From Encephalitozoon hellem ATCC 50504 (Eukaryota; Microsporidia; Unikaryonidae), in the NCBI RefSeq assembly GCF_000277815.2, contig NC_018472.1, positions 1 to 64,000 on the forward strand: DNA of 64,000 bases, given 5' to 3'. Made by a program: the position numbers and the translations under genes. Below the pieces are notes generated by a model that made no database searches, was not told where the DNA came from, and saw only the letters and a list, made by a program, of their open reading frames with translations. Every line of letters begins with the position of its first letter. Position 1 is the stretch's first letter. This document shows positions 1,279 through 15,182 of this stretch, in pieces.

Positions 1279-2067
1279 CAGACAATCCCCATTAAATCAA
1301 TTATACTACATCTATCCATCATACTTTCCAATTCCCCCTTGCTCTTGATAATAAATTCCATATAATCGAGCTGTCCTATAGATACCTGGTTGGTCTCATT
1401 CCCACTCCTTCAGTCGTGTGCCTCTTTGGCTTCCCAGCAGACACCCTTGAGTGACTTCTTTAGGATTTCACTAGAAACATCATAAGGAATCACACTAGGA
1501 TTAGGATCTTCCAGTCCCTTTATCAAGCACATGCCTCAGAAATCTAACTTCGCCTAAAGCATCCAAATGCTTCCAGAATTCCGATGTTCGGCCGCCTCCT
1601 TGCGACTACCAACCGCCTCTTCAAGCCATCATCCATAAAAAATCCTCAACATTATGCTTCCTAAGCTAGGAAAGATATCGCAGGCTTTCTTGATATCAAA
1701 TCTTCCACTGTAACCCCCATACTTGGCCACCAGGACCTCCGCCACTCACACACCTCTGTCCATGGCATTGCAGAGAAGCTTCTCATCCTCCCCAAACTGT
1801 TGCCAGAGAAAAGATCAATCCTCCTTTTTAGCTCCAAAAGGCTGCTAATCTCCAAATACTTCTCTAGCCAGAGTTTCAATAATTTCCATATATCTTGAAT
1901 AGATACTCAGAACCAATCTCATCGTTAAGTATCCCTGTAATCTCTCCTAGAAGATCTTTCTCTAGCTCCATGTTCTCACTTGGAAGACTCTTCACCCCAT
2001 CTAAACACCCATGGTCCACAGGCTGCAACGCCTCCCAGGACACAACACCATAGACACTTGCATCCAA
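1279..2067 (-). pseudogene. Decayed protein-coding relic of unknown family
   Basis: The minus strand opens with ATG at 2067 and 63 protein-like codons (charged, with ENMELEKDLL and LNDEIGSEYL), then a stop at 1878-1876. Protein-like text continues in changing frames: one stretch around 1800-1630 (KYGGYSGRFDIKKA, with a TGA inside), another around 1580-1510, and another around 1510-1280 (DPNPSVIPYD, SSEILKKSLKG). At least three frame changes and several in-frame stops separate them, so no intact product can be made. The leucine-rich, helical text could come from a helical-repeat protein, but I cannot name the family. It lies between subtelomeric family genes and shares their C-rich + strand bias. 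Confidence 0.5.
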
Positions 2068-2160
2068 TCATATACTAATCAAAATAACAAACCCATGCAC
2101 ACCAATCATATCTTCCAATCACATCATTCTCAGATTTATATCTCATCCATATACCCCATC

Positions 2161-2928
2161 ATGAATGCACATGCTCAGCAGCCACATCCCTCAGACCTGA
2201 ATACTCACACTAACACCCCAGGAGTACACTCGACATCCTTCCTAAGCCAGTATGCCCCATTCATCTCCATACTGCTCCCAACAGTCTCCTACATTCTATT
2301 CAAGCATGACTTCAAAAGCAGTATACTCATAAGACTCATCACAATACTCCTCCCCTGCTTATACAACTCAATCCAGCACCTACTCCTCTTCCATAGCATC
2401 CTCTCAACTGAAACACAGCACATACTCCACTCAATCTTCAAACTCATCATAGCCTCCATCCTTCTTTTTCTCTCTTTAACCCCACTGATTCAAATCCTCC
2501 TAATCTCCTTCGGCAAGTCCATAGGCTACCCCCACTTCTTCCTCATCCTCCCCTCCCTCCTGGTCCTTCCCCCCTACCTACTATCCACAACACTAGAATC
2601 CAAGCATCCCCTCAACCCTGCAATATCCCTCCTTGCCCTCATAACCATATACTCATACTACAATCAACAAGCCTACTACCCATACATCGCCGCAACATCC
2701 CCCATCCTCATTCTTGCCGCATCATGCAAGCATACATCCAGCCAGCACAAGCACACAGATCTCTCTAAAACAGTCCTCTTCCTCCTCGTATCCGCCGCCG
2801 CATGCATCATCATCTTCAAAGACTCCCTTCACCAACTACAAACCCGTCTAAGCAGCAACTCAGACTACAGAAATATACAAGAAAACTACATCCAGCCATT
2901 CCTAAGACTTACTGCAGAAATATTCTAA
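2161..2928 (+). CDS. DUF2463 family multi-pass membrane protein
   Basis: Encodes about 255 residues. After a polar Pro/His/Thr-rich head come six or seven hydrophobic segments and a short charged tail. It aligns with the next gene over the whole length: both have an HPSD motif near the start, then an ILLP-type first membrane segment, an ILLPCLY/ILPCLY motif and a VLPPYLL motif. These features match DUF2463, a membrane protein family known only from Encephalitozoon-type microsporidia and clustered near telomeres; its function is unknown. I chose ATG 2161 because its MNAH start matches the MNTH start of the paralogue; the frame is open further upstream to 2011, where it overlaps the relic on the other strand. 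Codons are C-rich at the third position (CTC, ATC, TCC), in line with the regional strand bias. Confidence 0.8.
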   Translation: MNAHAQQPHPSDLNTHTNTPGVHSTSFLSQYAPFISILLPTVSYILFKHDFKSSILIRLITILLPCLYNSIQHLLLFHSILSTETQHILHSIFKLIIASILLFLSLTPLIQILLISFGKSIGYPHFFLILPSLLVLPPYLLSTTLESKHPLNPAISLLALITIYSYYNQQAYYPYIAATSPILILAASCKHTSSQHKHTDLSKTVLFLLVSAAACIIIFKDSLHQLQTRLSSNSDYRNIQENYIQPFLRLTAEIF

Positions 2929-3026: not shown

Positions 3027-3827
3027 ATGAATACTCACTCCCCACCAAATCCCATCATGAACATTCCAGACATCTCACATCCATCTGACAACCCGCTCAG
3101 CAACAGGGAAAACCCCACAGCTATCTACAGCCCACTCATAAAACAGCATGCAGCAACCGTCTCCATACTACTTCCAATCGTCATAACTCTTCTGCTCAGG
3201 CACCATGTCAATACCATACCTCTCAAGCTCATCACAGTCATTCTTCCTTGCTTGTACTCAGGTCTCCAATATCTCTCCATATTCAGCCACAATAGAAACT
3301 ACCACCACATATCTCCGTCAGCACCCCTCACCACCTTTCACTTCATTTACAACATCATCCTTCTTCTATTCTCAACCATCTCATTTCTCTCAATTATTAC
3401 ATTATCTATTAACGACTGGGACAGAGGCGACTTTAACTTCTTCTCCACCACACTCTCCCCTTTCCTTGTTCTACCACCCTACCTGCTCGACACCTCATGC
3501 AATCTTACACAACCATATTCTCACTACGCAGCCACAGACTCCATCGACATACTTCTCGACCTTGTCATCTTCCTCTATCCCCTAGCAATGATAGCTATCA
3601 ATCTTCAGGAAGAGACTACCTGGATCCTTCACTCTGCCATCACCATCATCCTCTTCATCAGGTCGTATAGGAAAAGATGCCTTCCGCCCCCAAGCCATCA
3701 AGGCCCGCTGAAGGTATGGAGACTGATAGTCCCTATCATCACATTGCTTATCGGCGTAATCATATACAACGTTTTGGGATTCGGGTCCTTACTTATACTC
3801 AAAAAAAAGCTCAAGATCCATGCCTAA
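3027..3827 (+). CDS. DUF2463 family multi-pass membrane protein
   Basis: A 266-residue paralogue of the gene at 2161-2928, 98 bp downstream in tandem. It keeps the polar HPSD-containing head, the ILLP first membrane segment, ILPCLYSG, an acidic loop between membrane segments, and FLVLPPYLLD, followed by three further hydrophobic segments and a basic tail ending in a Lys-rich stretch. ATG 3027 gives the N-terminus closest to its neighbour; ATG 3057 (MNIPD) is also possible. AATAAATAAA-type sequence follows the stop directly and may serve as a poly(A) signal. The tandem arrangement indicates local duplication. Function unknown. Confidence 0.82.
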   Translation: MNTHSPPNPIMNIPDISHPSDNPLSNRENPTAIYSPLIKQHAATVSILLPIVITLLLRHHVNTIPLKLITVILPCLYSGLQYLSIFSHNRNYHHISPSAPLTTFHFIYNIILLLFSTISFLSIITLSINDWDRGDFNFFSTTLSPFLVLPPYLLDTSCNLTQPYSHYAATDSIDILLDLVIFLYPLAMIAINLQEETTWILHSAITIILFIRSYRKRCLPPPSHQGPLKVWRLIVPIITLLIGVIIYNVLGFGSLLILKKKLKIHA

Positions 3828-5997: not shown

Positions 5998-6735
5998 TCA
6001 GGCGTCTCCTCGCTCCCTAGCATACTTCAAGATCGCCTCCACTACACGCCTCTTCTTCCCCTCAAAGTCCGTCGAGTTGTCAATAACCTCTACTCGGCGG
6101 TGCCCTCTCCATCCCTCTCTTGTCCGCTTTTCCAATACCCGTGCCTCGGAAATGTCCTCAGACCGTGCAGAGTTGTTATCTCTCCCATAATACAGAGGCG
6201 CCCCCTCGGCCGCACTCACCAGGTGGATCACACAGTCATATCTCTTGTCCCTTACCTCATCAGAACACACACCCGCCTCAGAGCATACAGCCCTCCACTC
6301 GTCCTTATCCAAATACGCAGAACAGTCCATCACCCCTCGGTCATAAATCACAATCACATTCTCTCCACGAGAGGCAAGCTCTCCGCCAATCCCGTTGTAG
6401 ACATCCTCAATCCTCATCATCACATTCAACACATCAACCTGGAACCTCCTCCTCCGGTCCTCATTCATCTCCGCATACTTCACTCCCCCTCCTAGAATAA
6501 TCGTAGCCACCTCCGGCGATCGAAATACACGCCATCCCATCCTCTCAAACTCCTCGGCCACAAACCCCTGCACAGTCGTCTTCCCTCCACACGGCCCTCC
6601 AGTCAGGCACACACGCAAAATCTGCCCTCTCACCCTCTTCCCCAGAGAAGAAACATCCCCCGTGCCCTCATCTCCTTCACCAATCGCCTTCCCACTCTTC
6701 ATGCTTCTCTCTCCTTCACCCCTTTCTGTCACCAT
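5998..6735 (-). CDS. P-loop ATPase, TTD14/NadR-type AAA domain
   Basis: About 245 residues from ATG 6735; an upstream in-frame GTG at 6750 is not a credible eukaryotic start, and ATG 6702 is an alternative. After about 35 Gly/Glu-rich residues the core begins with a P-loop, GGPCGGKT (46-53), followed by a helix and a VFRSPEVAT segment, and later YDRGVMDCSAY, which matches the DRG...DxxAY motif of the AAA_28 family (insect TTD14, bacterial NadR kinase domain, and related proteins of fungi and protists). TTD14 binds GTP and phosphoinositides; NadR phosphorylates nicotinamide riboside. Substrate cannot be read here. It stands divergently from the acquired folate genes with 302 bp between them. 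Together with a domain not typical of microsporidian cores, that makes transfer with or near the folate genes plausible but unproven. Confidence 0.72.
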   Translation of the reverse strand: MVTERGEGERSMKSGKAIGEGDEGTGDVSSLGKRVRGQILRVCLTGGPCGGKTTVQGFVAEEFERMGWRVFRSPEVATIILGGGVKYAEMNEDRRRRFQVDVLNVMMRIEDVYNGIGGELASRGENVIVIYDRGVMDCSAYLDKDEWRAVCSEAGVCSDEVRDKRYDCVIHLVSAAEGAPLYYGRDNNSARSEDISEARVLEKRTREGWRGHRRVEVIDNSTDFEGKKRRVVEAILKYARERGDA

Positions 6736-7037: not shown

Positions 7038-8558
7038 ATGGATCTCGGGCTGGAAAGAGTCTCAAGATGCCTGGCAGACCTTGGAAACCCACACAACGCC
7101 TTTCCCGTTGTATATGTAACAGGAACAAACGGAAAGGGCTCCCTCTGCACTTTTCTCTCCAAGTTCTTTGAGCAGTACAACACCAGGAGATCAGAGTGCA
7201 TCGCCGCAGAAACACAGGCCTCCAGGGCCCCGAGAATCTGCTGGGGTGTGCTCACATCCCCTCCCCTCCTCGGCCCATGGGACACAATACAGATAGACGG
7301 CAGGGCAATCAGTAGGGCAGAGTACGAAGAAAGAAAGAGCATCCTAGAGAGCACAGTCAGCAGTTTCCCGGCCCTCACCGCATTCGAGAAGAACGTCGTC
7401 GTGGCAGTCACGTTGTTCAGGGCCCACAAAATCAGGGTCGGCATCATAGAGGCAGGGATAGGTCATTTCCTCGATGCAACCAACATATTTCCTGGAGAGA
7501 ACCTCATAACCGCCGTCCTGACATCCATTGCAATAGACCACACAGAGGTCCTGGGGAAAACCGTCGAGCACATAGTAGGACACAAGATACGCCTTGCCAG
7601 GAGCGGGAGGCCTGTGTTTGTAAGCCCTCAGCCTTCCGACAGCTTAACCAGGACGATTGCCAAGATGTACAGAGACTCCGGCATCGAGCCTATCTATTGC
7701 GTCGAAAAGATATGCAGAGTCCTCTCTGACACAGATGGACTCATCTACAGGGTCCAGGGGTTCCATGGAGAGCAGACATATCACATAAGGATTGAGCACC
7801 TTTCGCTCCTTGGAGACCACCAGGGAAGAGCCAACCTTCCCACGGCAATATGCGTATTTCTCTATGTGATCGTGGTGCATCTCAACGAAAAAGGCCAGGC
7901 CCAGGCAATCAGATCCATTGCCGATGCATGCCGCGGAATCAGGCTTCCTGGGCGTCTTGAGAGGCTGCACAACGTGTCGGACATCTTCAGGGGAATAAGG
8001 AAAACACTTCCACTTCTGGGAGACACAGAGAGACCGGGCAACGTGTCAATCATACTCGATGGCGCCCATAACGTAAGCGGAGTGTGCGAGCTGACCAGAT
8101 ATGTCGAGAAGATAAAAAGCCCGGGGCTCAGGATATGCTGGATCGTCGGGATTACAGACAGAAAGGACACACACGGGATTCTTTCACAGATCGGGAGGTG
8201 CTTGTGCAAGAGAAAAGGCATGGGAGAAAGAATCTACTTCGTAGGGTTTAAAGGGCCTGTATCGATGGAGTGGGTACGGTGCACCCCTCCTTCGGAGCTA
8301 GCAAGTGCTTTCACCGGACTCATGGACAAAGAGGCAGGGAAACAAGACAGCAAAACGAGTAGTAGCACGAGCAGAAAAGGCATTTCCGTCGTCGAAGGCA
8401 TGAGCCTGGAAGAAGCACTTGTGGACTGCATCGGCAAGAAGAGAAAGAAGACAGCAATTATTGTCACGGGGTCGCTTTACTTGGTATCAGACATCTACCG
8501 ACTGAAAGAGGCAGCTAGGGATCCAGCCCACTGCTACCGAGCAAACCGTAAAGCTTGA
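7038..8558 (+). CDS. FPGS: Dihydrofolate synthase / folylpolyglutamate synthase
   Basis: A 506-residue Mur-ligase-type enzyme that joins glutamate to dihydropteroate and/or extends folate polyglutamates, using ATP. Visible motifs: P-loop GTNGKGS (29-35), TSPPL (73-77), EAGIGHFLDATN (138-149), DHTEVLG (167-173), the HQGRANLP segment (261-268), PGRLERL (304-310), and DGAHN (341-345) in the C-terminal domain. Length fits the eukaryotic/bacterial FolC range. With FolB/K/P and GTP cyclohydrolase next door, a dihydrofolate synthase role is needed to complete the route; family motifs do not separate the two activities. It is convergent with the FolB/K/P gene and overlaps it by 44 bp. Higher GC and balanced G/C on the + strand set it apart from the flanking subtelomeric genes. 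Known (not shown here) to be horizontally acquired in E. hellem and E. romaleae. Confidence 0.92.
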   Translation: MDLGLERVSRCLADLGNPHNAFPVVYVTGTNGKGSLCTFLSKFFEQYNTRRSECIAAETQASRAPRICWGVLTSPPLLGPWDTIQIDGRAISRAEYEERKSILESTVSSFPALTAFEKNVVVAVTLFRAHKIRVGIIEAGIGHFLDATNIFPGENLITAVLTSIAIDHTEVLGKTVEHIVGHKIRLARSGRPVFVSPQPSDSLTRTIAKMYRDSGIEPIYCVEKICRVLSDTDGLIYRVQGFHGEQTYHIRIEHLSLLGDHQGRANLPTAICVFLYVIVVHLNEKGQAQAIRSIADACRGIRLPGRLERLHNVSDIFRGIRKTLPLLGDTERPGNVSIILDGAHNVSGVCELTRYVEKIKSPGLRICWIVGITDRKDTHGILSQIGRCLCKRKGMGERIYFVGFKGPVSMEWVRCTPPSELASAFTGLMDKEAGKQDSKTSSSTSRKGISVVEGMSLEEALVDCIGKKRKKTAIIVTGSLYLVSDIYRLKEAARDPAHCYRANRKA

Positions 8559-10674
8559 CAATCGATGCGTTTTCAGGCACATCATGGACCCTTACAATAA
8601 AGGTCTTACTACGGCAAAGCATAGAAGTGCCCCCAAGCGTCCCCCACAGGGTAGCGGGGTGCACACAATCTCCAGGCACAGATAGCCCGACCTTCTCGAT
8701 AAAGCTCTTCCTCGAATGTCCCACAAGACAAGGATAGCTAGAAAACGGATGATGCCTATGGTACCCAGACATCACCTCAACACTCTGCATCGGAGTCTTT
8801 GCAAACCCTATCCCGGGATCTAGAATGATGTTCCATCTGTAGACCCCACTCCTTCTGGCCTCCATCAGAATATCGTTGGTCTCCTTCGAGACTTCTTCCA
8901 GAAGGCTTTGCCCACGTGCAGAGGAAACCAGGGACCCCATCGTCCTCGGAGTCCCCCGCGAATGCATAAGAACAATCGGTACACTCAGGTCTGCAACAAC
9001 CTCATACATCTCCGCCATCCCATCTGCATGCAGAGTCGTGTTCATGAAATTTGCTCCCCGCCTCAGGCATTCACGTGCTATCCTAGCCGACGTCGTATCA
9101 ATCGATATAATGACATCCTTGTCTATCTTCCTTACATCCTCTAGCACAGGAATCACCCTGGAATATTCCTCCTCAACATCTACCGAGGCGGCCCCGGGCC
9201 TTGTGGACACTCCCCCTATGTCAACTATATCCGCACCTTGTTCCACCATCTCAATAAACCTCTTCCGAGCATCACAGAGACTAAGATAGCACCCGCCATC
9301 AGAAAAACTGTCCGGCGTCACATTCAGTATCCCCATCACCAGCGTACTTCCTAGAGACCCCCATCTGTACAGCTTGCTTCCAAGCCACATCACCCTCTCC
9401 ACACCCACAAAGGGCATCCTTTCAACATCTAGCCCAACACTAGCCCTGAGGTCAATCTTCCTCAAACAGCCCTCAAGCAGACACCTAACAGACATCTTCC
9501 GAAGAGGATCCATGAAGAAAGGATCAATGTCTGCAAGTGGCCTCAACACCCACTCACGCAGGTGCAGGCGGGGATGCGGTATCACTAGATCCCTGCTGTC
9601 AACAACAAGATCCTCGTAAAACACAATGTCAAGGTCAATCTTCCTATCATCCGTCCCCCTTGCCTTCATCCTCCCAACACGCTCTTCTATCCCCTTCACC
9701 ACCCGAAGAAGCGAGGAGGCAGAGTGCAGAGTCCTTATCTTGACCCCTGCATTCACAAACTCCCTATCAGAAACCTCCCCATCCCCTTGGTACCCGGAAA
9801 GATACAGGAACGAGGTGTCCACTATCTCAACCCCACACTCCTTCAGCAGCTTAAGCCCAGAGTGAATGTTGCCGACCTTGTCCCCCATGTTCGATCCTAC
9901 ACATATGTATGCCGTCCTCAGATCCTCTCCTCCTTTAGCCTCCGCATGCCCTCTCTCCGCCAAGGCATGCCGCGTCGCCCTCCCTATCCTCACTCCGGAG
10001 CTCAATCCTCCAAGAGCCCCATGCATCTTCTGAAGGAAAACACAGACCCTTACAAAACAGTATCTCTCCTCCACAAAATCAACAATTCGGCTTGCCAAGC
10101 ACTCCATGGTGTTATACTCTCCCCTCTCCATCTCCCCGATAATAGAGGAAATCAAAGACTGCGTGTTGATCCGAGGAAGGCGCTCCGGAGCTACCTTTGG
10201 ATACATCCCCTCAACCTCTACCCTGATATCCTGCCTCTGGCACCTCTCCGCATCCTTGCACCCTATAAGCACCCTGCCACAGATATCCCCGACCACCAAC
10301 AGCTCACTCCATCCCCCGTCTCTCCTCGCCTTGTATACAACCTCCTTCGAAAGAGAGCTACTTCCAGGAAGCTTGACTGCTACCTCAATCCTTCCCTCTC
10401 CTCCAAGCCCATCAACTATCTCGGCCATCCTTCGAGAAAAGTCCCACACATATACCGCACACTCCAAGGCCTCCCAGTACTCCCGGATCCTTCTCACACA
10501 CAACCCAAGGTCCAGCGTCCTCGACACGCAATCCCTCGCACAGACATCAGAAAGCTTGACATCCATCTTCAACGTCACTCCAACCGCCTTCTCTATCCTG
10601 TGGTCGCACTCAGAAACTATCACAGGGAGAAAGCCCTGAAGATCAGACAGCTGAAGTTGCTCAACAGGGGTCAT
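8515..10674 (-). CDS. FASP: Trifunctional folate synthesis protein: FolB (x2) - FolK - FolP
   Basis: About 719 residues from ATG 10674. Order: two dihydroneopterin aldolase-like domains (about 20-125 and 126-240), hydroxymethyldihydropterin pyrophosphokinase (about 254-390; YICVGSNMGD at 256-265, DRKIDLDI near 343, IPHPRL near 365), then dihydropteroate synthase (about 444-719; MGILNVTPDSFSDGG near 447, STRPGA, DPGIGFAKT, GHSRKSF). This is the fungal FOL1 arrangement, the enzyme family targeted by sulfonamides. The frame is open to an ATG at 10884, but those 70 residues resemble nothing and ATG 10674 is preceded by AAATATATAACAA about 20 bases upstream, so I prefer 10674. The aldolase domains look divergent and their activity is uncertain. 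The tail overlaps the converging folate synthase gene; the GTP cyclohydrolase gene lies 229 bp upstream on the same strand. Confidence 0.92.
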   Translation of the reverse strand: MTPVEQLQLSDLQGFLPVIVSECDHRIEKAVGVTLKMDVKLSDVCARDCVSRTLDLGLCVRRIREYWEALECAVYVWDFSRRMAEIVDGLGGEGRIEVAVKLPGSSSLSKEVVYKARRDGGWSELLVVGDICGRVLIGCKDAERCQRQDIRVEVEGMYPKVAPERLPRINTQSLISSIIGEMERGEYNTMECLASRIVDFVEERYCFVRVCVFLQKMHGALGGLSSGVRIGRATRHALAERGHAEAKGGEDLRTAYICVGSNMGDKVGNIHSGLKLLKECGVEIVDTSFLYLSGYQGDGEVSDREFVNAGVKIRTLHSASSLLRVVKGIEERVGRMKARGTDDRKIDLDIVFYEDLVVDSRDLVIPHPRLHLREWVLRPLADIDPFFMDPLRKMSVRCLLEGCLRKIDLRASVGLDVERMPFVGVERVMWLGSKLYRWGSLGSTLVMGILNVTPDSFSDGGCYLSLCDARKRFIEMVEQGADIVDIGGVSTRPGAASVDVEEEYSRVIPVLEDVRKIDKDVIISIDTTSARIARECLRRGANFMNTTLHADGMAEMYEVVADLSVPIVLMHSRGTPRTMGSLVSSARGQSLLEEVSKETNDILMEARRSGVYRWNIILDPGIGFAKTPMQSVEVMSGYHRHHPFSSYPCLVGHSRKSFIEKVGLSVPGDCVHPATLWGTLGGTSMLCRSKTFIVRVHDVPENASIVKLYGLLGSSGLDP

Positions 10675-10903
10675 CAGAAGAATCGAGGCACTTGTTATAT
10701 ATTTGCCTCCAGCCCCACAGAAGAGAGAAAGGCCAGGGTGCTCCAGATATCGCAAGCCCCATCGAGGTTTCCGGTGCCCGTACAGACCGGCTGCCAAGCA
10801 TCCACTCGCGGCCCATAGAGTAAGAGGGATTAAAGACGTCTTCGTGCCTCTGTACTGCCAGGCAAGGCCTTCTAGAAAAAACACCGGCCTTTGCTACGTG
10901 ACG

Positions 10904-11572
10904 TCAGAGAGAAGAATGCATAGGGTATGGAAAGCTCTTTATTGAGGTCGCCATGAAGCTGTCGAACTCTTGCTTTGTCTCCGGCCTCTCAATGAAGTCT
11001 CCACTCAGCTTCGATGTTCTTGTCCTGCATCCATGGTGGTTGACTCCCCGGGAGCAAAGGCAGAAGTGGGCTGCTGTAACGACACATGCAACCCCGCGGT
11101 TGCCCTTGCAGAACTGATCGATCGAAGTCCATATCGATAGGGTAAGGTCTTCCTGCAACTGGGGCATCCGGGCATGGAACTCGACAATCCGGTTCAGCTT
11201 GCTCAGCCCAATTATCTTTCCCTCTTTCTGCGGAATATAGGCTACATAGGCCTCTCCTATAAAAGGAGAGTGATGATGAGAGCAGATTGATTTAATGGGA
11301 ATTGGTCCATGGAAAAGAAGATCCTCATATCCTTGGGTGTTATCGAAGATAGTAATTTGTGGAGGAGGAGTGTATAGGGAAGCTGCAATGTCATTGACCC
11401 ATGCCTTTGAAACTCTGAGAGGTGTATCAATGGTGTGGGGATTCTCCTTATAGTCGATTCCAAGGGCCTCCATAAATGCCCCATAGGCCTTAGAAGCTCT
11501 TTCGATCATCTGCATCTTTTCCTGTTCTGATAAGGGACCATCTGTTCTAGAGGACAGCGGGAAAGCCTTCAT
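10904..11572 (-). CDS. GTPC: GTP cyclohydrolase I
   Basis: 222 residues, the usual length for FolE/GCH1. It opens GTP to 7,8-dihydroneopterin triphosphate, the first step of folate synthesis. Visible: TIDTPLRVSKAW (47-58), zinc-site CSHHH (97-101), GLSKLNRIVEFHARMPQLQE (122-141), and a second zinc cysteine in HFCLCSRGV (169-177), followed by RTRTSKLSG. Cys97, His100 and Cys171 correspond to the zinc ligands of FolE. The HFC.CSRGV form looks more bacterial than animal or fungal, which is an impression without a tree. It lies upstream of the FolB/K/P gene on the same strand. Base composition is less GC-rich than in the two other folate genes. Its start is preceded by AAATTT and CCC elements like those of native genes. 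Confidence 0.93.
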   Translation of the reverse strand: MKAFPLSSRTDGPLSEQEKMQMIERASKAYGAFMEALGIDYKENPHTIDTPLRVSKAWVNDIAASLYTPPPQITIFDNTQGYEDLLFHGPIPIKSICSHHHSPFIGEAYVAYIPQKEGKIIGLSKLNRIVEFHARMPQLQEDLTLSIWTSIDQFCKGNRGVACVVTAAHFCLCSRGVNHHGCRTRTSKLSGDFIERPETKQEFDSFMATSIKSFPYPMHSSL

Positions 11573-11587
11573 AGGGTTTTTAAATTT
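11573..11587 (-). promoter_or_regulatory. AAATTT and CCC elements before GTP cyclohydrolase start
   Basis: Reading on the minus strand, AAATTT (11587-11582), five A/T bases, then CCC (11576-11574), one T and the ATG at 11572. The same pair of elements precedes the ribosomal protein gene at 40121. AAATTT-like and CCC-like motifs close to starts are described for microsporidian genes. Confidence 0.55.
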
Positions 11588-11865
11588 CTACTTTCTTTCG
11601 ATATATCGTAGTTCATAATATTCAAGAAGTTTGCGAGGTAGTGTCTAAAATAAAAACATAGAAGTCATAACGAAACCATTTACTTTAATGTAATACCTTC
11701 TTAACAGATACCCAGAAACTTACTAGTATCAGGTGTCTAAGTGATAGGTCTTTCTTTCGCGGATTACTCCACCTATTATTTCATTAATTGATATGTGCAA
11801 CCAATTATACTAATTTCCCAGTAACATAAATATATGGAGCACAGAACCCCATTACTTTTGTTGAT

Positions 11866-12570
11866 ATGGATTCTACTTCGCACCAAACAGGTATCATACA
11901 AGCTTCAGCAAAGCACATTTTTGCGATTGTGTCCATTGCATTTCCAGCTGTTATGCATTTTTTAATAGGTTCTTCGATGAAAGATAGCTTGGCCTTCAAA
12001 TTCATGGCAATTTTTCTTCCATTTTTATATTCAGCATCGCAGAATTTCTCTCTGTTTCTCATCAGCAGGGATTCAGAATACAAATCTCCATCTCTCCTGC
12101 ATTCAATACTCTATTTTTTCATTACACTCTCTCTCATCGCGTTTTCTGCCATCGATGTAATCTCAACCATTATCTTTACTCTCGAAAAATACGATAATGA
12201 TGCCTCTTTCTCTATTCTTCTTCCATCCTTTGTTGTATCTAGGGCTTATCTACTATCTACTTCTTGTATCTTTGCACCAGGTTCAATTCAATTTACGGAT
12301 ACAGGTTTCAACCTTTTCATTGATATTCTAATTCTTTTGCGTATTATAGCCGGAATAGCTTTTCCGATCGATGATTCAAGCTTTATCTACATTGCTGCCC
12401 TTTCATTCATTTTTATCTTGTTAAGGTCGCTCAATCTGGGTAGTAGATTGCCACTGGACACAGATTATGCATTATGGAGGCAGCTCTTGGCTTTCTTCAT
12501 CTTTGGAATCTCGATATTTGTATATATGATAATGGCGCGTATAGTCATATCTGTTTTCATCAATCATTGA
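11866..12570 (+). CDS. DUF2463 family membrane protein, core-side copy
   Basis: 234 residues with about six or seven hydrophobic segments. It aligns with the two copies at 2161 and 3027: a first membrane segment with AFPAVMHFLI, then KFMAIFLPFLYSASQ (cf. ILPCLYSGLQ), an acidic loop with EKYDND, a LLPSFVVSRAYLLSTS segment equivalent to VLPPYLL, and a C-terminal pair of helices. The first codons are MDSTS. Base usage differs sharply from the other two: AT-rich codons and no C-rich bias, matching the core to its right. It therefore marks the inner border of the subtelomere, with the folate genes between it and its paralogues. Its divergence suggests an old copy. Function unknown. Confidence 0.8.
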   Translation: MDSTSHQTGIIQASAKHIFAIVSIAFPAVMHFLIGSSMKDSLAFKFMAIFLPFLYSASQNFSLFLISRDSEYKSPSLLHSILYFFITLSLIAFSAIDVISTIIFTLEKYDNDASFSILLPSFVVSRAYLLSTSCIFAPGSIQFTDTGFNLFIDILILLRIIAGIAFPIDDSSFIYIAALSFIFILLRSLNLGSRLPLDTDYALWRQLLAFFIFGISIFVYMIMARIVISVFINH

Positions 12571-12749
12571 ATTTCTTTGTGAATGAGCTGTTCGATAGTA
12601 TTTTACTAGTAGCTATTGAATAAACATCTTTTTTGAATGCTGATACTTATTACTTGAACTCTTTTATTCTTTCTCTGATATAGAGTTCTGTTTCAGCTTT
12701 AGATGTACGTCTTCCATATCCTTGTAGCGCTCGCAAAACTATAAGCACA

Positions 12750-15182
12750 TTAACAGCCATCATATCTACATTTTATTGCCAAGATTTCCTTGCTTTGGCA
12801 TCCTACATAAACAACCTCTCCATCCCATACAAGAGAGTTTATTGCTCCTCCTGCTTTCAGTTTACCAACACAGAATACAGAGTTATCCCAAAAGTCCCAA
12901 AACCTAAGCATTCCATCCTTAGAACCTGTCACAAATGAATCCTTCATTGATACTCCACATTTTATCCATGAGTCGTGTGCATATGGGACCGTCTTAACTA
13001 TTGACTTGTTTCTCCACCTTCTTATGGAGCAGTCTCTTCCAAAGCTTATTAAGTTATCATTATAGCATAGTAATCCCTGGATTGAATCTAAATGTGGCGG
13101 AGAAAGAGTTGTAAACTCACCGTTATAGCATTTGACTGTATGATCCCTAGATCCTGTATACGTGTCTGGCCCTATCTTCTCTATGCAAAAAACGGTTCCA
13201 GAATGTGCCTTTTCAGAAAGTACCAGCTTGCAATTTCTCTGGTCGAGCATTGAAAGTGTTCCATCTTCATGACCGGTGAATATGTAATTGTCTCTTGAGA
13301 GAAGTGCCGAGACCTCGCTCCTGAAGCCATACAATGGTCGTGTGCCTGACCTGTGATCAAATCTTTTCAGTATTCCTCTTGTTGTATACAAGAGAGTATC
13401 AGATCCCTCTATACACCTGACGCCTTCCTCTGTGAACAAAGCTTCTACTTTGTCGTTCCATTTTCTGATTTTATTGTCTATAGATGCGAATACAAGGTGT
13501 GAATCGAAGAGTGTTAATGCTGTGGGAAGGTATCCAGTCAGCTTATTTTCTATTGCTGTTGTCATTGTTATCTTTTCCTTTCTAGGTGTGAAGAGTGCGT
13601 ATTTTTTAGTATTTCTGTCTAAATCAAAAGAAACGATTCTTTTGTGTGCTTTGTTAATCTTTGGTTCTGTTTCTTGTTCTTCTACAATTTCACAAGTGTC
13701 TGATATCTCTAGGGAGTCCACGTATTTTCTTATTGTGTCAATTTTGTTGTACTCTTCTTTACTCTGATTTTCTGTTTGTATCCTGCCTTCACTGGCTTTG
13801 TTAAATACTTCTTCAGGTTTACTCAAGTGATCCTCGTTGCTCTTCCTGCTGAGATCATCTTCGGGAGAATTTGCCTTATTCTCGGAGCTTTTCCTTTTGG
13901 CAAACCCAAAACTTTTTTCGTACTTTCTAACATCTGGACAGCTGTCTATTCCTGAAGGCCTTTGTCCTTCCAAGTCCTTGGATGTCTTTTCGACCATATC
14001 TTTAAGCCTCTGGTTTTCATCTATCAGGTTCTGAACGAAAGGGTGCTTTAAAATTTCCTGTATGATGTCTTCTCTTTTGTCGTCCTTTTCAAGGCTTAGG
14101 GCCTCCACCTTTGATTTGAGAATTCTATTTTCAGATATTAATTCTTCTACATTAATTCTGGATTCTTTCCTAAATCTTTCTTTAAGCATTTGGTTTTCCA
14201 CTTTGAGCTTCTGTATTTCTTTCTTCAGAAGAAGTGTTGCGAACTTCGACCCATCAATTTGCACATTCATCTTTGCCGTGGTTTCGATAGAAGCTGCTCT
14301 ACTTGCATACTTCAAAGTGTTATGTGTTTCACCTATATCTGCGTGAGAAGAAGAAACGCAGGCAATCATCAAAATGTAGCCACTTAAGCAGCTTTGAAGT
14401 ATTCTAGTGAGCTTTGAATCTCTAAAAGGAACATGGGAAGATTTCTTGAATAAAGCAGAGATCACATTCCCAAGAGCCAAGAGTCCAGAGTTTATAGAAA
14501 TTCCCTCCTTCGCACGGTCTCCTGCACACAAAGTCCTCTTGAGCCTTTCACTTCCTGCAAGGTCGACAAAGGAGAACTTCGACGTCACAAATGATCCATT
14601 TACCTCTCTTCTATGAGAAAGAATGAATATCGCATGGCTTCTCGACGACTTTGAATTCATGTTGGTTGACTTTGTTGTTCTTTCCAAGGATCCTTTCTTC
14701 AAGGCTTCCACTCCATCTTTATATGATCTTAGAGTTACCTCTGTTGCGCCAGCGATTGTGATTTCACCATTTACCTCTCTTAGGCTCAATGGCATCTTGT
14801 GCTTGCTGAATAAATCAATTACCTCCTCATTGTAAACCTCTATGAAGATACAGCTTATTTCCTGACATGCCTTGAATATGTGTTTAAGGGACTGTGGGAC
14901 AATTCCTGTCATGTCTTCATGTGTCATTCCCATTGTGTAGGTTTTTCCGCTCCCTGTCTGGCCATATGCCATTACTGTACAATTATAGCCTTCAAGGAAA
15001 GATTCTGTAAGATGCCTGACGCTCCTGTCATACATTTGCATTTGTGATGTAGTGAGATGTACCTTGTTAAAACCATACGTCTTTGTCCCTATGGTTAGTG
15101 CTGTTGGCGTGCTTTCTATTACGTTATCCAGCCTGGGATTTATTCGTACTTCCACCTGGATTCTATTCTTCTTCTCTTCCAT
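12750..15182 (-). CDS. Kinesin-4/KIF21-like motor with C-terminal WD40 domain
   Basis: 810 residues. N-terminal motor domain (about 8-310): P-loop GQTGSGKT (74-81), switch I NSKSSRSH (176-183), switch II DLAGSE (207-212), then an ISINSGLLALGNVISAL segment. A coiled-coil region (about 310-420) and an acidic/Lys-rich linker follow, then a WD40 domain (about 535-805) with motifs such as GSRDHTVKCY, FGRDCSIRRW and GSKDGMLRFW. Motor plus coiled coil plus C-terminal WD40 is the KIF21 branch of kinesin-4, plus-end motors that restrain microtubule growth. The protein is about half the length of animal KIF21, as expected in microsporidia. It stands divergently from the NTE gene with 93 bp between starts. 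Confidence 0.85.
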   Translation of the reverse strand: MEEKKNRIQVEVRINPRLDNVIESTPTALTIGTKTYGFNKVHLTTSQMQMYDRSVRHLTESFLEGYNCTVMAYGQTGSGKTYTMGMTHEDMTGIVPQSLKHIFKACQEISCIFIEVYNEEVIDLFSKHKMPLSLREVNGEITIAGATEVTLRSYKDGVEALKKGSLERTTKSTNMNSKSSRSHAIFILSHRREVNGSFVTSKFSFVDLAGSERLKRTLCAGDRAKEGISINSGLLALGNVISALFKKSSHVPFRDSKLTRILQSCLSGYILMIACVSSSHADIGETHNTLKYASRAASIETTAKMNVQIDGSKFATLLLKKEIQKLKVENQMLKERFRKESRINVEELISENRILKSKVEALSLEKDDKREDIIQEILKHPFVQNLIDENQRLKDMVEKTSKDLEGQRPSGIDSCPDVRKYEKSFGFAKRKSSENKANSPEDDLSRKSNEDHLSKPEEVFNKASEGRIQTENQSKEEYNKIDTIRKYVDSLEISDTCEIVEEQETEPKINKAHKRIVSFDLDRNTKKYALFTPRKEKITMTTAIENKLTGYLPTALTLFDSHLVFASIDNKIRKWNDKVEALFTEEGVRCIEGSDTLLYTTRGILKRFDHRSGTRPLYGFRSEVSALLSRDNYIFTGHEDGTLSMLDQRNCKLVLSEKAHSGTVFCIEKIGPDTYTGSRDHTVKCYNGEFTTLSPPHLDSIQGLLCYNDNLISFGRDCSIRRWRNKSIVKTVPYAHDSWIKCGVSMKDSFVTGSKDGMLRFWDFWDNSVFCVGKLKAGGAINSLVWDGEVVYVGCQSKEILAIKCRYDGC

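What the first reader, a model, noticed from the sequence alone, without database searches (positions are those of the whole stretch)
7038..11572. Intact three-gene folate synthesis cluster at a microsporidian chromosome end
FolC, a FolB-FolB-FolK-FolP fusion and FolE-type GTP cyclohydrolase sit together. Seen directly: intact frames and catalytic motifs in all three. Known: folate genes were reported as horizontally acquired in E. hellem and E. romaleae and partly pseudogenised in the latter. Inference: this is E. hellem, and the cluster covers GTP to dihydrofolate, leaving the parasite less dependent on host folate; a pterin triphosphate phosphatase and p-aminobenzoate source are not visible.
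Basis: partly seen in the sequence, partly recalled or inferred. Interest (0 to 1): 0.75.

Follow-up and report, generated by a model that had tools for sequence, protein, structure and literature searches.

The report
Parasite's folate genes at chromosome end
A tiny parasite of animals keeps three intact genes for making the vitamin folate near a chromosome end; this was already known for this species, but related genes in other lineages, one of them a named crayfish parasite, suggest that at least one of the three is older than a recent borrowing.

Summary
Three open frames (FolC 7038-8558 +; FolB-FolB-FolK-FolP 8515-10674 -; FolE 10904-11572 -) lie near the left end of contig C5 of an Encephalitozoon hellem assembly. 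As I recall, these intact genes are published (Pombert 2012; not readable here), so the core is not new.

Four points go further. (1) The three genes recur on three unnamed contigs of 9.1-20.3 kb. (2) The fusion also occurs in a second group with the crayfish parasite Astathelohania contejeani; nine rows, two of them named, form one clade (100/100). Vertical descent of the fusion from a fungal ancestor is not excluded and nor is transfer; FolE looks bacterial. (3) The first FolB lacks the Tyr kept by 107 of 111 other proteins, so the aldolase step is uncertain. (4) 54 bases inside FolE recur, 53 identical, at the end of contig C4, near a GC3 step.

The pathway looks incomplete: no PF00425 match (p-aminobenzoate synthesis) and no Nudix match except Dcp2.

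The parts
7038..8558 (+). FolC-type gene, probably a dihydrofolate synthase of the fungal Fol3 kind, 506 aa, P-loop GTNGKGS, DGAHN motif
8515..10674 (-). FolB-FolB-FolK-FolP fusion, 719 aa (fungal FOL1 architecture)
10318..10674 (-). FolB1, about residues 1-119: folded domain without the conserved Tyr (Leu56), second Glu (Trp77) and Lys (Leu102); probably a structural partner (inference)
9955..10317 (-). FolB2, about residues 120-240: keeps Glu143, Glu191, Lys216; Thr171 at the Tyr position
9400..9918 (-). FolK (HPPK), about residues 253-425: Arg335, Arg344, Asp347, Asp349, His367 kept; Asp343 where 105 of 111 others have Pro
8527..9354 (-). FolP (DHPS), about residues 441-716: Asn451, Asp485, Thr491, Asp526, Asn545, Asp619, Lys656, Arg695, His697 kept
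10904..11572 (-). FolE-type GTP cyclohydrolase I, 222 aa, of bacterial look; Cys97, His100, Cys171 align with the zinc-site residues (role recalled)
11171..11224 (.). 54 bases inside FolE found again, 53 of 54 identical, at G000:C4:1-54; the GC3 step inside FolE lies at codon 121, about 11209

Best explanation
This is a working, or recently working, partial folate pathway. FolE turns GTP into dihydroneopterin triphosphate. An unknown phosphatase removes the phosphates. The double-FolB unit makes hydroxymethyl-dihydropterin, FolK activates it, and FolP joins it to p-aminobenzoate taken from outside. FolC (dihydrofolate synthase) adds glutamate. DHFR, thymidylate synthase, SHMT and a second FolC-like enzyme, coded at other contig ends, then use the product. 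FolE is probably of bacterial origin. The fusion gene, and probably FolC, are of fungal type and older than the E. hellem/E. romaleae split. The cluster straddles the border between subtelomere and chromosome core, where exchange with another chromosome end seems to have cut through FolE. Shown: frames, domains, relatives, the shared 54 bases. Inferred: every reaction, the origins and the exchange.
For: Domains and frames. The three genes on contigs of equal length (9205, 20308, 9112) in three further sources. Of 15 FolK and FolP positions scored, the window keeps 14; the other is the Pro before Arg344, Asp here (which positions are catalytic is recalled). DHFR, TS and SHMT at both ends of C1; FolC-like gene at the end of C6. 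FolE apart from 31 named rows (30 Bacteroidota, 1 Pseudomonadota) in a group whose one named row is an uncultured bacterium. FolC in a 50-row group with 24 named fungi (100/99). Nine-row clade for the fusion (100/100); beside the aphelid in a reduced tree (83/65). C4 fragment and GC3 step.
Against: The FolB1 Tyr is lost, so the aldolase step may be weak or changed. No match for PF00425, PTPS or a Nudix other than Dcp2. In this assembly the whole-cluster DNA search found only the cluster itself and the 54-base fragment, so a second copy is not seen. FolC and the fusion have changed faster in E. hellem than in the nearest relative (unique changes 43 against 15 and 52 against 25; FolE 8 against 9), which fits relaxed constraint as well as base bias. 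No expression or enzyme data.
Confidence: 0.7

Rival explanations
1. All three genes were gained by horizontal transfer from separate donors in the common ancestor of E. hellem and E. romaleae (the published account, as I recall it).
For: FolE looks bacterial. Transfer of the fusion from Dikarya is not rejected (p-AU 0.474; 0.125).
Against: The fusion is also in Astathelohania and three unnamed rows beside it, in one clade with E. hellem (100/100). The three genes recur together in three further sources at 49-81% identity. The gain would have to be older, or be repeated between microsporidia.
Confidence: 0.3
2. The cluster is a decaying relic: the pathway no longer works in E. hellem because the aldolase step is dead.
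For: FolB1 has lost Tyr, the second Glu and Lys, and the FolB2 Tyr position is Thr. More unique changes in FolC, FolK and FolP in E. hellem. The closest relative's fusion frame leaves the family pattern near residue 631 and lacks the last three scored residues. As I recall, E. romaleae has pseudogenes.
Against: The window's frames are open. FolB2 keeps both Glu and the Lys, and 14 of 15 scored FolK/FolP positions are kept. The FolB1 Lys is lost in 8 of 8 rows with a letter there and the Tyr in 6 of 7, window included, so these losses are not special to E. hellem.
Confidence: 0.2
3. The FolB-FolB unit has become a different tunnelling-fold enzyme, for example one that handles the triphosphate directly, which would also explain the missing phosphatase.
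For: The only two solved chains found by sequence for FolB2 are dihydroneopterin triphosphate epimerases (named Epimerase in one of the two rows, its full name). Tyr is lost. A Tyr53Phe aldolase structure exists (title).
Against: Only weak sequence scores (E 0.0004 and 0.004). Glu143, Glu191 and Lys216 of the usual fusion are kept. Fold matches say nothing about substrate.
Confidence: 0.1

Closest known systems
Fungal FOL1 (FolB-FolB-FolK-FolP; PMC4224340, passages)
   Same: Domain order; double tunnelling fold; scored FolB2 Glu, Glu, Lys, FolP and five FolK positions
   Different: That paper lists E. hellem with a single folB and left it out of its trees as a long branch; here FolB1 is present but without its Tyr, second Glu and Lys
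Fungal Fol3 dihydrofolate synthase
   Same: In a 50-row group with 24 named fungi (100/99); GTNGKGS P-loop and DGAHN
   Different: 25-30% identity to the named fungal rows, an 18-column insert in the N-terminal part, HKIR where the fungal rows shown read xKAG
Bacterial GTP cyclohydrolase I (P0006 and similar unnamed rows; Flavobacteriaceae-labelled P0065)
   Same: 49-57% identity to the listed rows outside the E. hellem group
   Different: Enzymes with solved structures score far lower: 14 of 15 at 85-101 bits and one at 50, against 262 for P0006
Folate gene set of E. hellem, Pombert 2012 PNAS (recalled; only its reference line seen)
   Same: Same species and, as I recall, the same genes, intact

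Membership tests
GTP cyclohydrolase I | Pfam GTP_cyclohydroI over its cut-off | tested here: met
   141.9 bits, cut-off 27; none of the four NCBIfam folE cut-offs is reached (best 145.1 of 202)
GTP cyclohydrolase I | Zinc-site Cys, His, Cys | tested here: met
   Cys97, His100 and Cys171 align with Cys, His and Cys of the solved enzymes; the role of the residues is recalled
Dihydrofolate synthase (FolC/Fol3) | FolC model over cut-off, with P-loop and DGAHN | tested here: met
   186.3 bits, cut-off 162.65; motifs; Pfam Mur-ligase domains under their cut-offs
Dihydrofolate synthase (FolC/Fol3) | Uses dihydropteroate rather than folate | not testable with these tools
   Inferred from grouping with fungal rows, one named Fol3, and from a second FolC-like gene with GTKGKGS at C6
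Fungal FolB-FolB-FolK-FolP | Two FolB domains before FolK-FolP | tested here: met
   Residues 1-250 model as a double tunnelling-fold unit; first half aligns with fungal FolB1
Fungal FolB-FolB-FolK-FolP | FolB1 Tyr | tested here: not met
   Leu in the window; Tyr in 107 of 111 others and in 1 of 7 rows of the nine-row clade with a letter there (Astathelohania)
Fungal FolB-FolB-FolK-FolP | FolB2 Glu, Glu, Lys; FolK and FolP scored residues | tested here: met
   All three FolB2 residues and 14 of 15 FolK/FolP positions kept; the exception is the Pro before Arg344
Recent horizontally acquired cluster | All three trees nest in foreign donors, apart from other microsporidia | tested here: not met
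   FolE with rows of bacterial look; FolC with fungi, donor unclear; the fusion is joined by Astathelohania

The most novel reading that the evidence does not exclude
The fusion gene, and perhaps FolC, were never borrowed by E. hellem. They are remnants of the fungal folate pathway kept in scattered microsporidia and lost in most, and only FolE was replaced by a bacterial gene. In this line a double-FolB enzyme works without its active-site Tyr.
Probability: 0.4. Interest if true: 0.65.

Novelty: already known. Interest (0 to 1): 0.42.

Why it matters
The E. hellem folate genes are, as I recall, a known example of a parasite assembling a pathway by gene transfer and a sister species then losing it. 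If the fusion gene is old, the story becomes one of patchy retention with one bacterial replacement. That would change how transfer is counted in reduced genomes, and it predicts that sulfonamides should act on some microsporidia and not on others.

Tried and rejected
High GC as a sign of foreign origin: not used. GC is 52-53% in FolC and the fusion against 40% on the core side, and a neighbour (AAA_28) has 54%, but the outer 6 kb have only 44%, so the subtelomere alone does not explain it either. PMC10158259 reports composition shifts at subtelomeres in all three species studied (passages). The all-base change point inside FolE alone was not significant (70 of 300 shuffles); GC3 was (5 of 1000).

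Missing steps: the only Nudix match carries a Dcp2 box A domain. PTPS: no match (control rang in 9 of 14). BT1 carrier: no match (control rang in 4 of 14). PF01770 is uninformative because its control rang nowhere. Passages of PMC3486916 and PMC10245619 name folate transporters in microsporidia or in the parasites compared with them, so uptake by another carrier is not excluded. The lyase of p-aminobenzoate synthesis was not searched.

Donor of the fusion gene: not rejected are Dikarya (p-AU 0.474, 0.125), Ascomycota (0.109), Mucoromycota with Basidiobolus (0.447), the aphelid (0.862, log-likelihood 5.7 above the free tree) and a place outside crown fungi (0.49). A test with Nuclearia did not finish. 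The tree used the window and 50 of the 120 listed proteins; the reduced set (38 rows) leaves out P0243, P0245 and P0247 of the nine, and the FolB part. The FolC tree used 60 of 120 listed proteins and warns that the C6 gene meets another long branch.

I translated 40 of its 80 loci; 32 stayed after dereplication (72 of 159 rows in all; P0001 and P0005 dropped beforehand, P0065 lost in dereplication), and 31 of the 32 fell outside the relevant group. That group has one named row, L025, an uncultured bacterium on a long branch. No named donor, and no fungal FolE as a control.

Whether the Astathelohania group has FolE or FolC: none of its contig lengths appears in the 120 rows listed of each search, but 1374 and 7802 proteins matched, so this is open. 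The AAA_28 neighbour had no informative structure match. A paper search for the role of the aldolase Tyr gave nothing of use; that role is recalled.

Full report
What is there. Near the left end of contig C5 (the window is C5:1-64000; G000 has 2,251,784 bases in 12 contigs) three frames stand side by side: FolC, a FolB-FolB-FolK-FolP fusion and FolE. All are open and match their families, with the weak points given under the observation check. The closest named proteins are those of Encephalitozoon hellem, differing at 1 of 222 (FolE), 7 of 719 (fusion) and 23 of 506 (FolC) residues.

What is known. I recall from Pombert et al. 2012 (PNAS) that these genes are intact in E. hellem, are pseudogenes in E. 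romaleae for the de novo steps, and were read as transfers from several donors. The paper is not held; I saw only its reference line. PMC4224340 (passages) lists the E. [quoted passage not shown] Six searches of the open-licence library listed no title, and I read no passage, that describes these three genes in other microsporidia; I did not open every listed paper, and subscription papers are not covered.

Relatives. Each of the three protein searches returned the E. hellem record and then hits on contigs of 9205, 20308 and 9112 bases: FolE 81, 73, 70% identical; FolC 61, 52, 49%; fusion 65, 58, 55%. Equal lengths make it very likely that each contig holds all three genes; the contigs could not be fetched. 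The fusion also appears in Astathelohania contejeani (P0247) and in the unnamed P0245, P0246, P0248 and P0249. PMC10845963 calls Astathelohania an orphan lineage (passage); that Encephalitozoon lies in Nosematida is recalled. In a tree of 51 rows the window and eight relatives form one clade (100/100) in two halves, five rows with E. hellem and four with Astathelohania. Only these two are named; that the other seven are microsporidian is inference.

Origins. With the FolB part and three of the nine rows left out, the clade stands beside the aphelid Amoeboaphelidium (83/65), while six Dikarya rows (two of them unnamed) stand together without it (97/91). None of the six finished tests rejects its placement. 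So the data allow vertical descent and an old transfer, and speak against a gain limited to the ancestor of E. hellem and E. romaleae. FolC falls in a group of 50 rows (100/99): four of the E. hellem kind, 24 named fungi and 22 unnamed; its place inside is weak (83/79). FolE and its three relatives fall in a group of 41 rows apart from 31 named rows, 30 of them Bacteroidota (100/100); 36 of the other 37 are unnamed and one is an uncultured bacterium. The join to the nearest row, P0006, is 90/86. The bacterial reading also rests on one listed row labelled Flavobacteriaceae (P0065).

Mechanism. Of 15 FolK and FolP positions scored, the window keeps 14; relatives depart in single cases (P0244 has Lys for the first FolK Arg; P0243 lacks the last three), and all nine rows lack the Pro before the second FolK Arg. 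Across the 111 other fusion proteins, FolB1 keeps Tyr in 107 and FolB2 keeps Lys in 111, the second Glu in 111 and the first Glu in 110, while FolB1 Lys (84 of 111) and FolB2 Tyr (72 of 111) are relaxed. This pattern suggests one composite active site, Tyr from FolB1 and Glu, Glu and Lys from FolB2 (inference; that aldolase sites lie between subunits is recalled). The nine-row clade keeps the FolB2 half (first Glu in 7 of 8 rows with a letter there, second Glu and Lys in 9 of 9) but has the FolB1 Tyr in only 1 of 7. The model shows FolB1 as a well-folded domain.

Pathway. Downstream users exist: DHFR, TS and SHMT at both ends of C1, and a second FolC-like gene with a GTKGKGS P-loop at the end of C6, probably a folylpolyglutamate synthase (the meaning of the motif is recalled). 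No match was found for PF00425, PTPS or a Nudix other than Dcp2. De novo synthesis would then need outside p-aminobenzoate and an unidentified phosphatase.

Chromosome setting. C4 begins with 54 bases that match window 11171-11224 at 53 of 54, and then diverges. An E. hellem protein record labelled partial ends at FolE residue 130 (P0005). GC3 in FolE rises from 0.41 in the first 116 codons to 0.65 after them, with a change point at codon 121 (5 of 1000 shuffles), and the strongest composition step in 7038-15000 is at 11210. PMC10158259 reports segments of 3.0 to 37.5 kb shared between chromosome ends (passage). My inference is that the ends of C4's and C5's chromosomes share a segment outward from within FolE, so FolC and the fusion may exist twice while FolE is whole only on C5. 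Against it: this assembly shows no second copy. FolC and the fusion, not FolE, have more GC-rich-codon residues than three relatives each and more unique changes than the nearest relative, which fits base bias or relaxed constraint.

Verdict. The finding is real and, in its core, already known as I recall it. The additions concern its age, the FolB change and the junction in FolE.

Noticed in passing
window 5998-6735 (-): 245-aa P-loop protein of family AAA_28 (72 bits), GC 54%, the only match over the family cut-off in the genome. From memory it resembles TTD14-like proteins of animals; it could be another acquired gene.
   Followed up: partly
G000:C4:1-54 (L002, L004): Fragment of FolE at the contig end, 53 of 54 identical to window 11171-11224.
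   Followed up: yes
G000:C6:198673-199959 (L015, L021): Second FolC-like gene next to a DUF1609/DUF3654 gene; GC3 only 0.30, unlike the window's FolC at 0.61.
   Followed up: partly
G000:C1:8586-11394 and 150191-152999: DHFR, thymidylate synthase and SHMT stand in a row at both ends of C1 with equal scores.
   Followed up: partly
P0243 (unnamed contig of 9205 bases): The fusion of the closest relative leaves the family pattern near residue 631 and stops at 640, while its FolC and FolE proteins are about full length; assembly error or early decay, source unknown.
   Followed up: partly
L023:1904-3913 (G000:C4): 669-aa open frame with a phosphoribosyltransferase domain (47 bits) close to the end of C4.
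   Followed up: no
window 2011-2928, 3027-3827, 11866-12570: Three DUF2463 genes, two on the outer side of the cluster and one on the core side; GC3 0.57 in the first and 0.36 in the third.
   Followed up: no
P0121 against window 7038-8558: FolC differs between E. hellem records at 23 of 506 residues while the fusion differs at 7 of 719 and FolE at 1 of 222; a second copy or a strain difference.
   Followed up: partly
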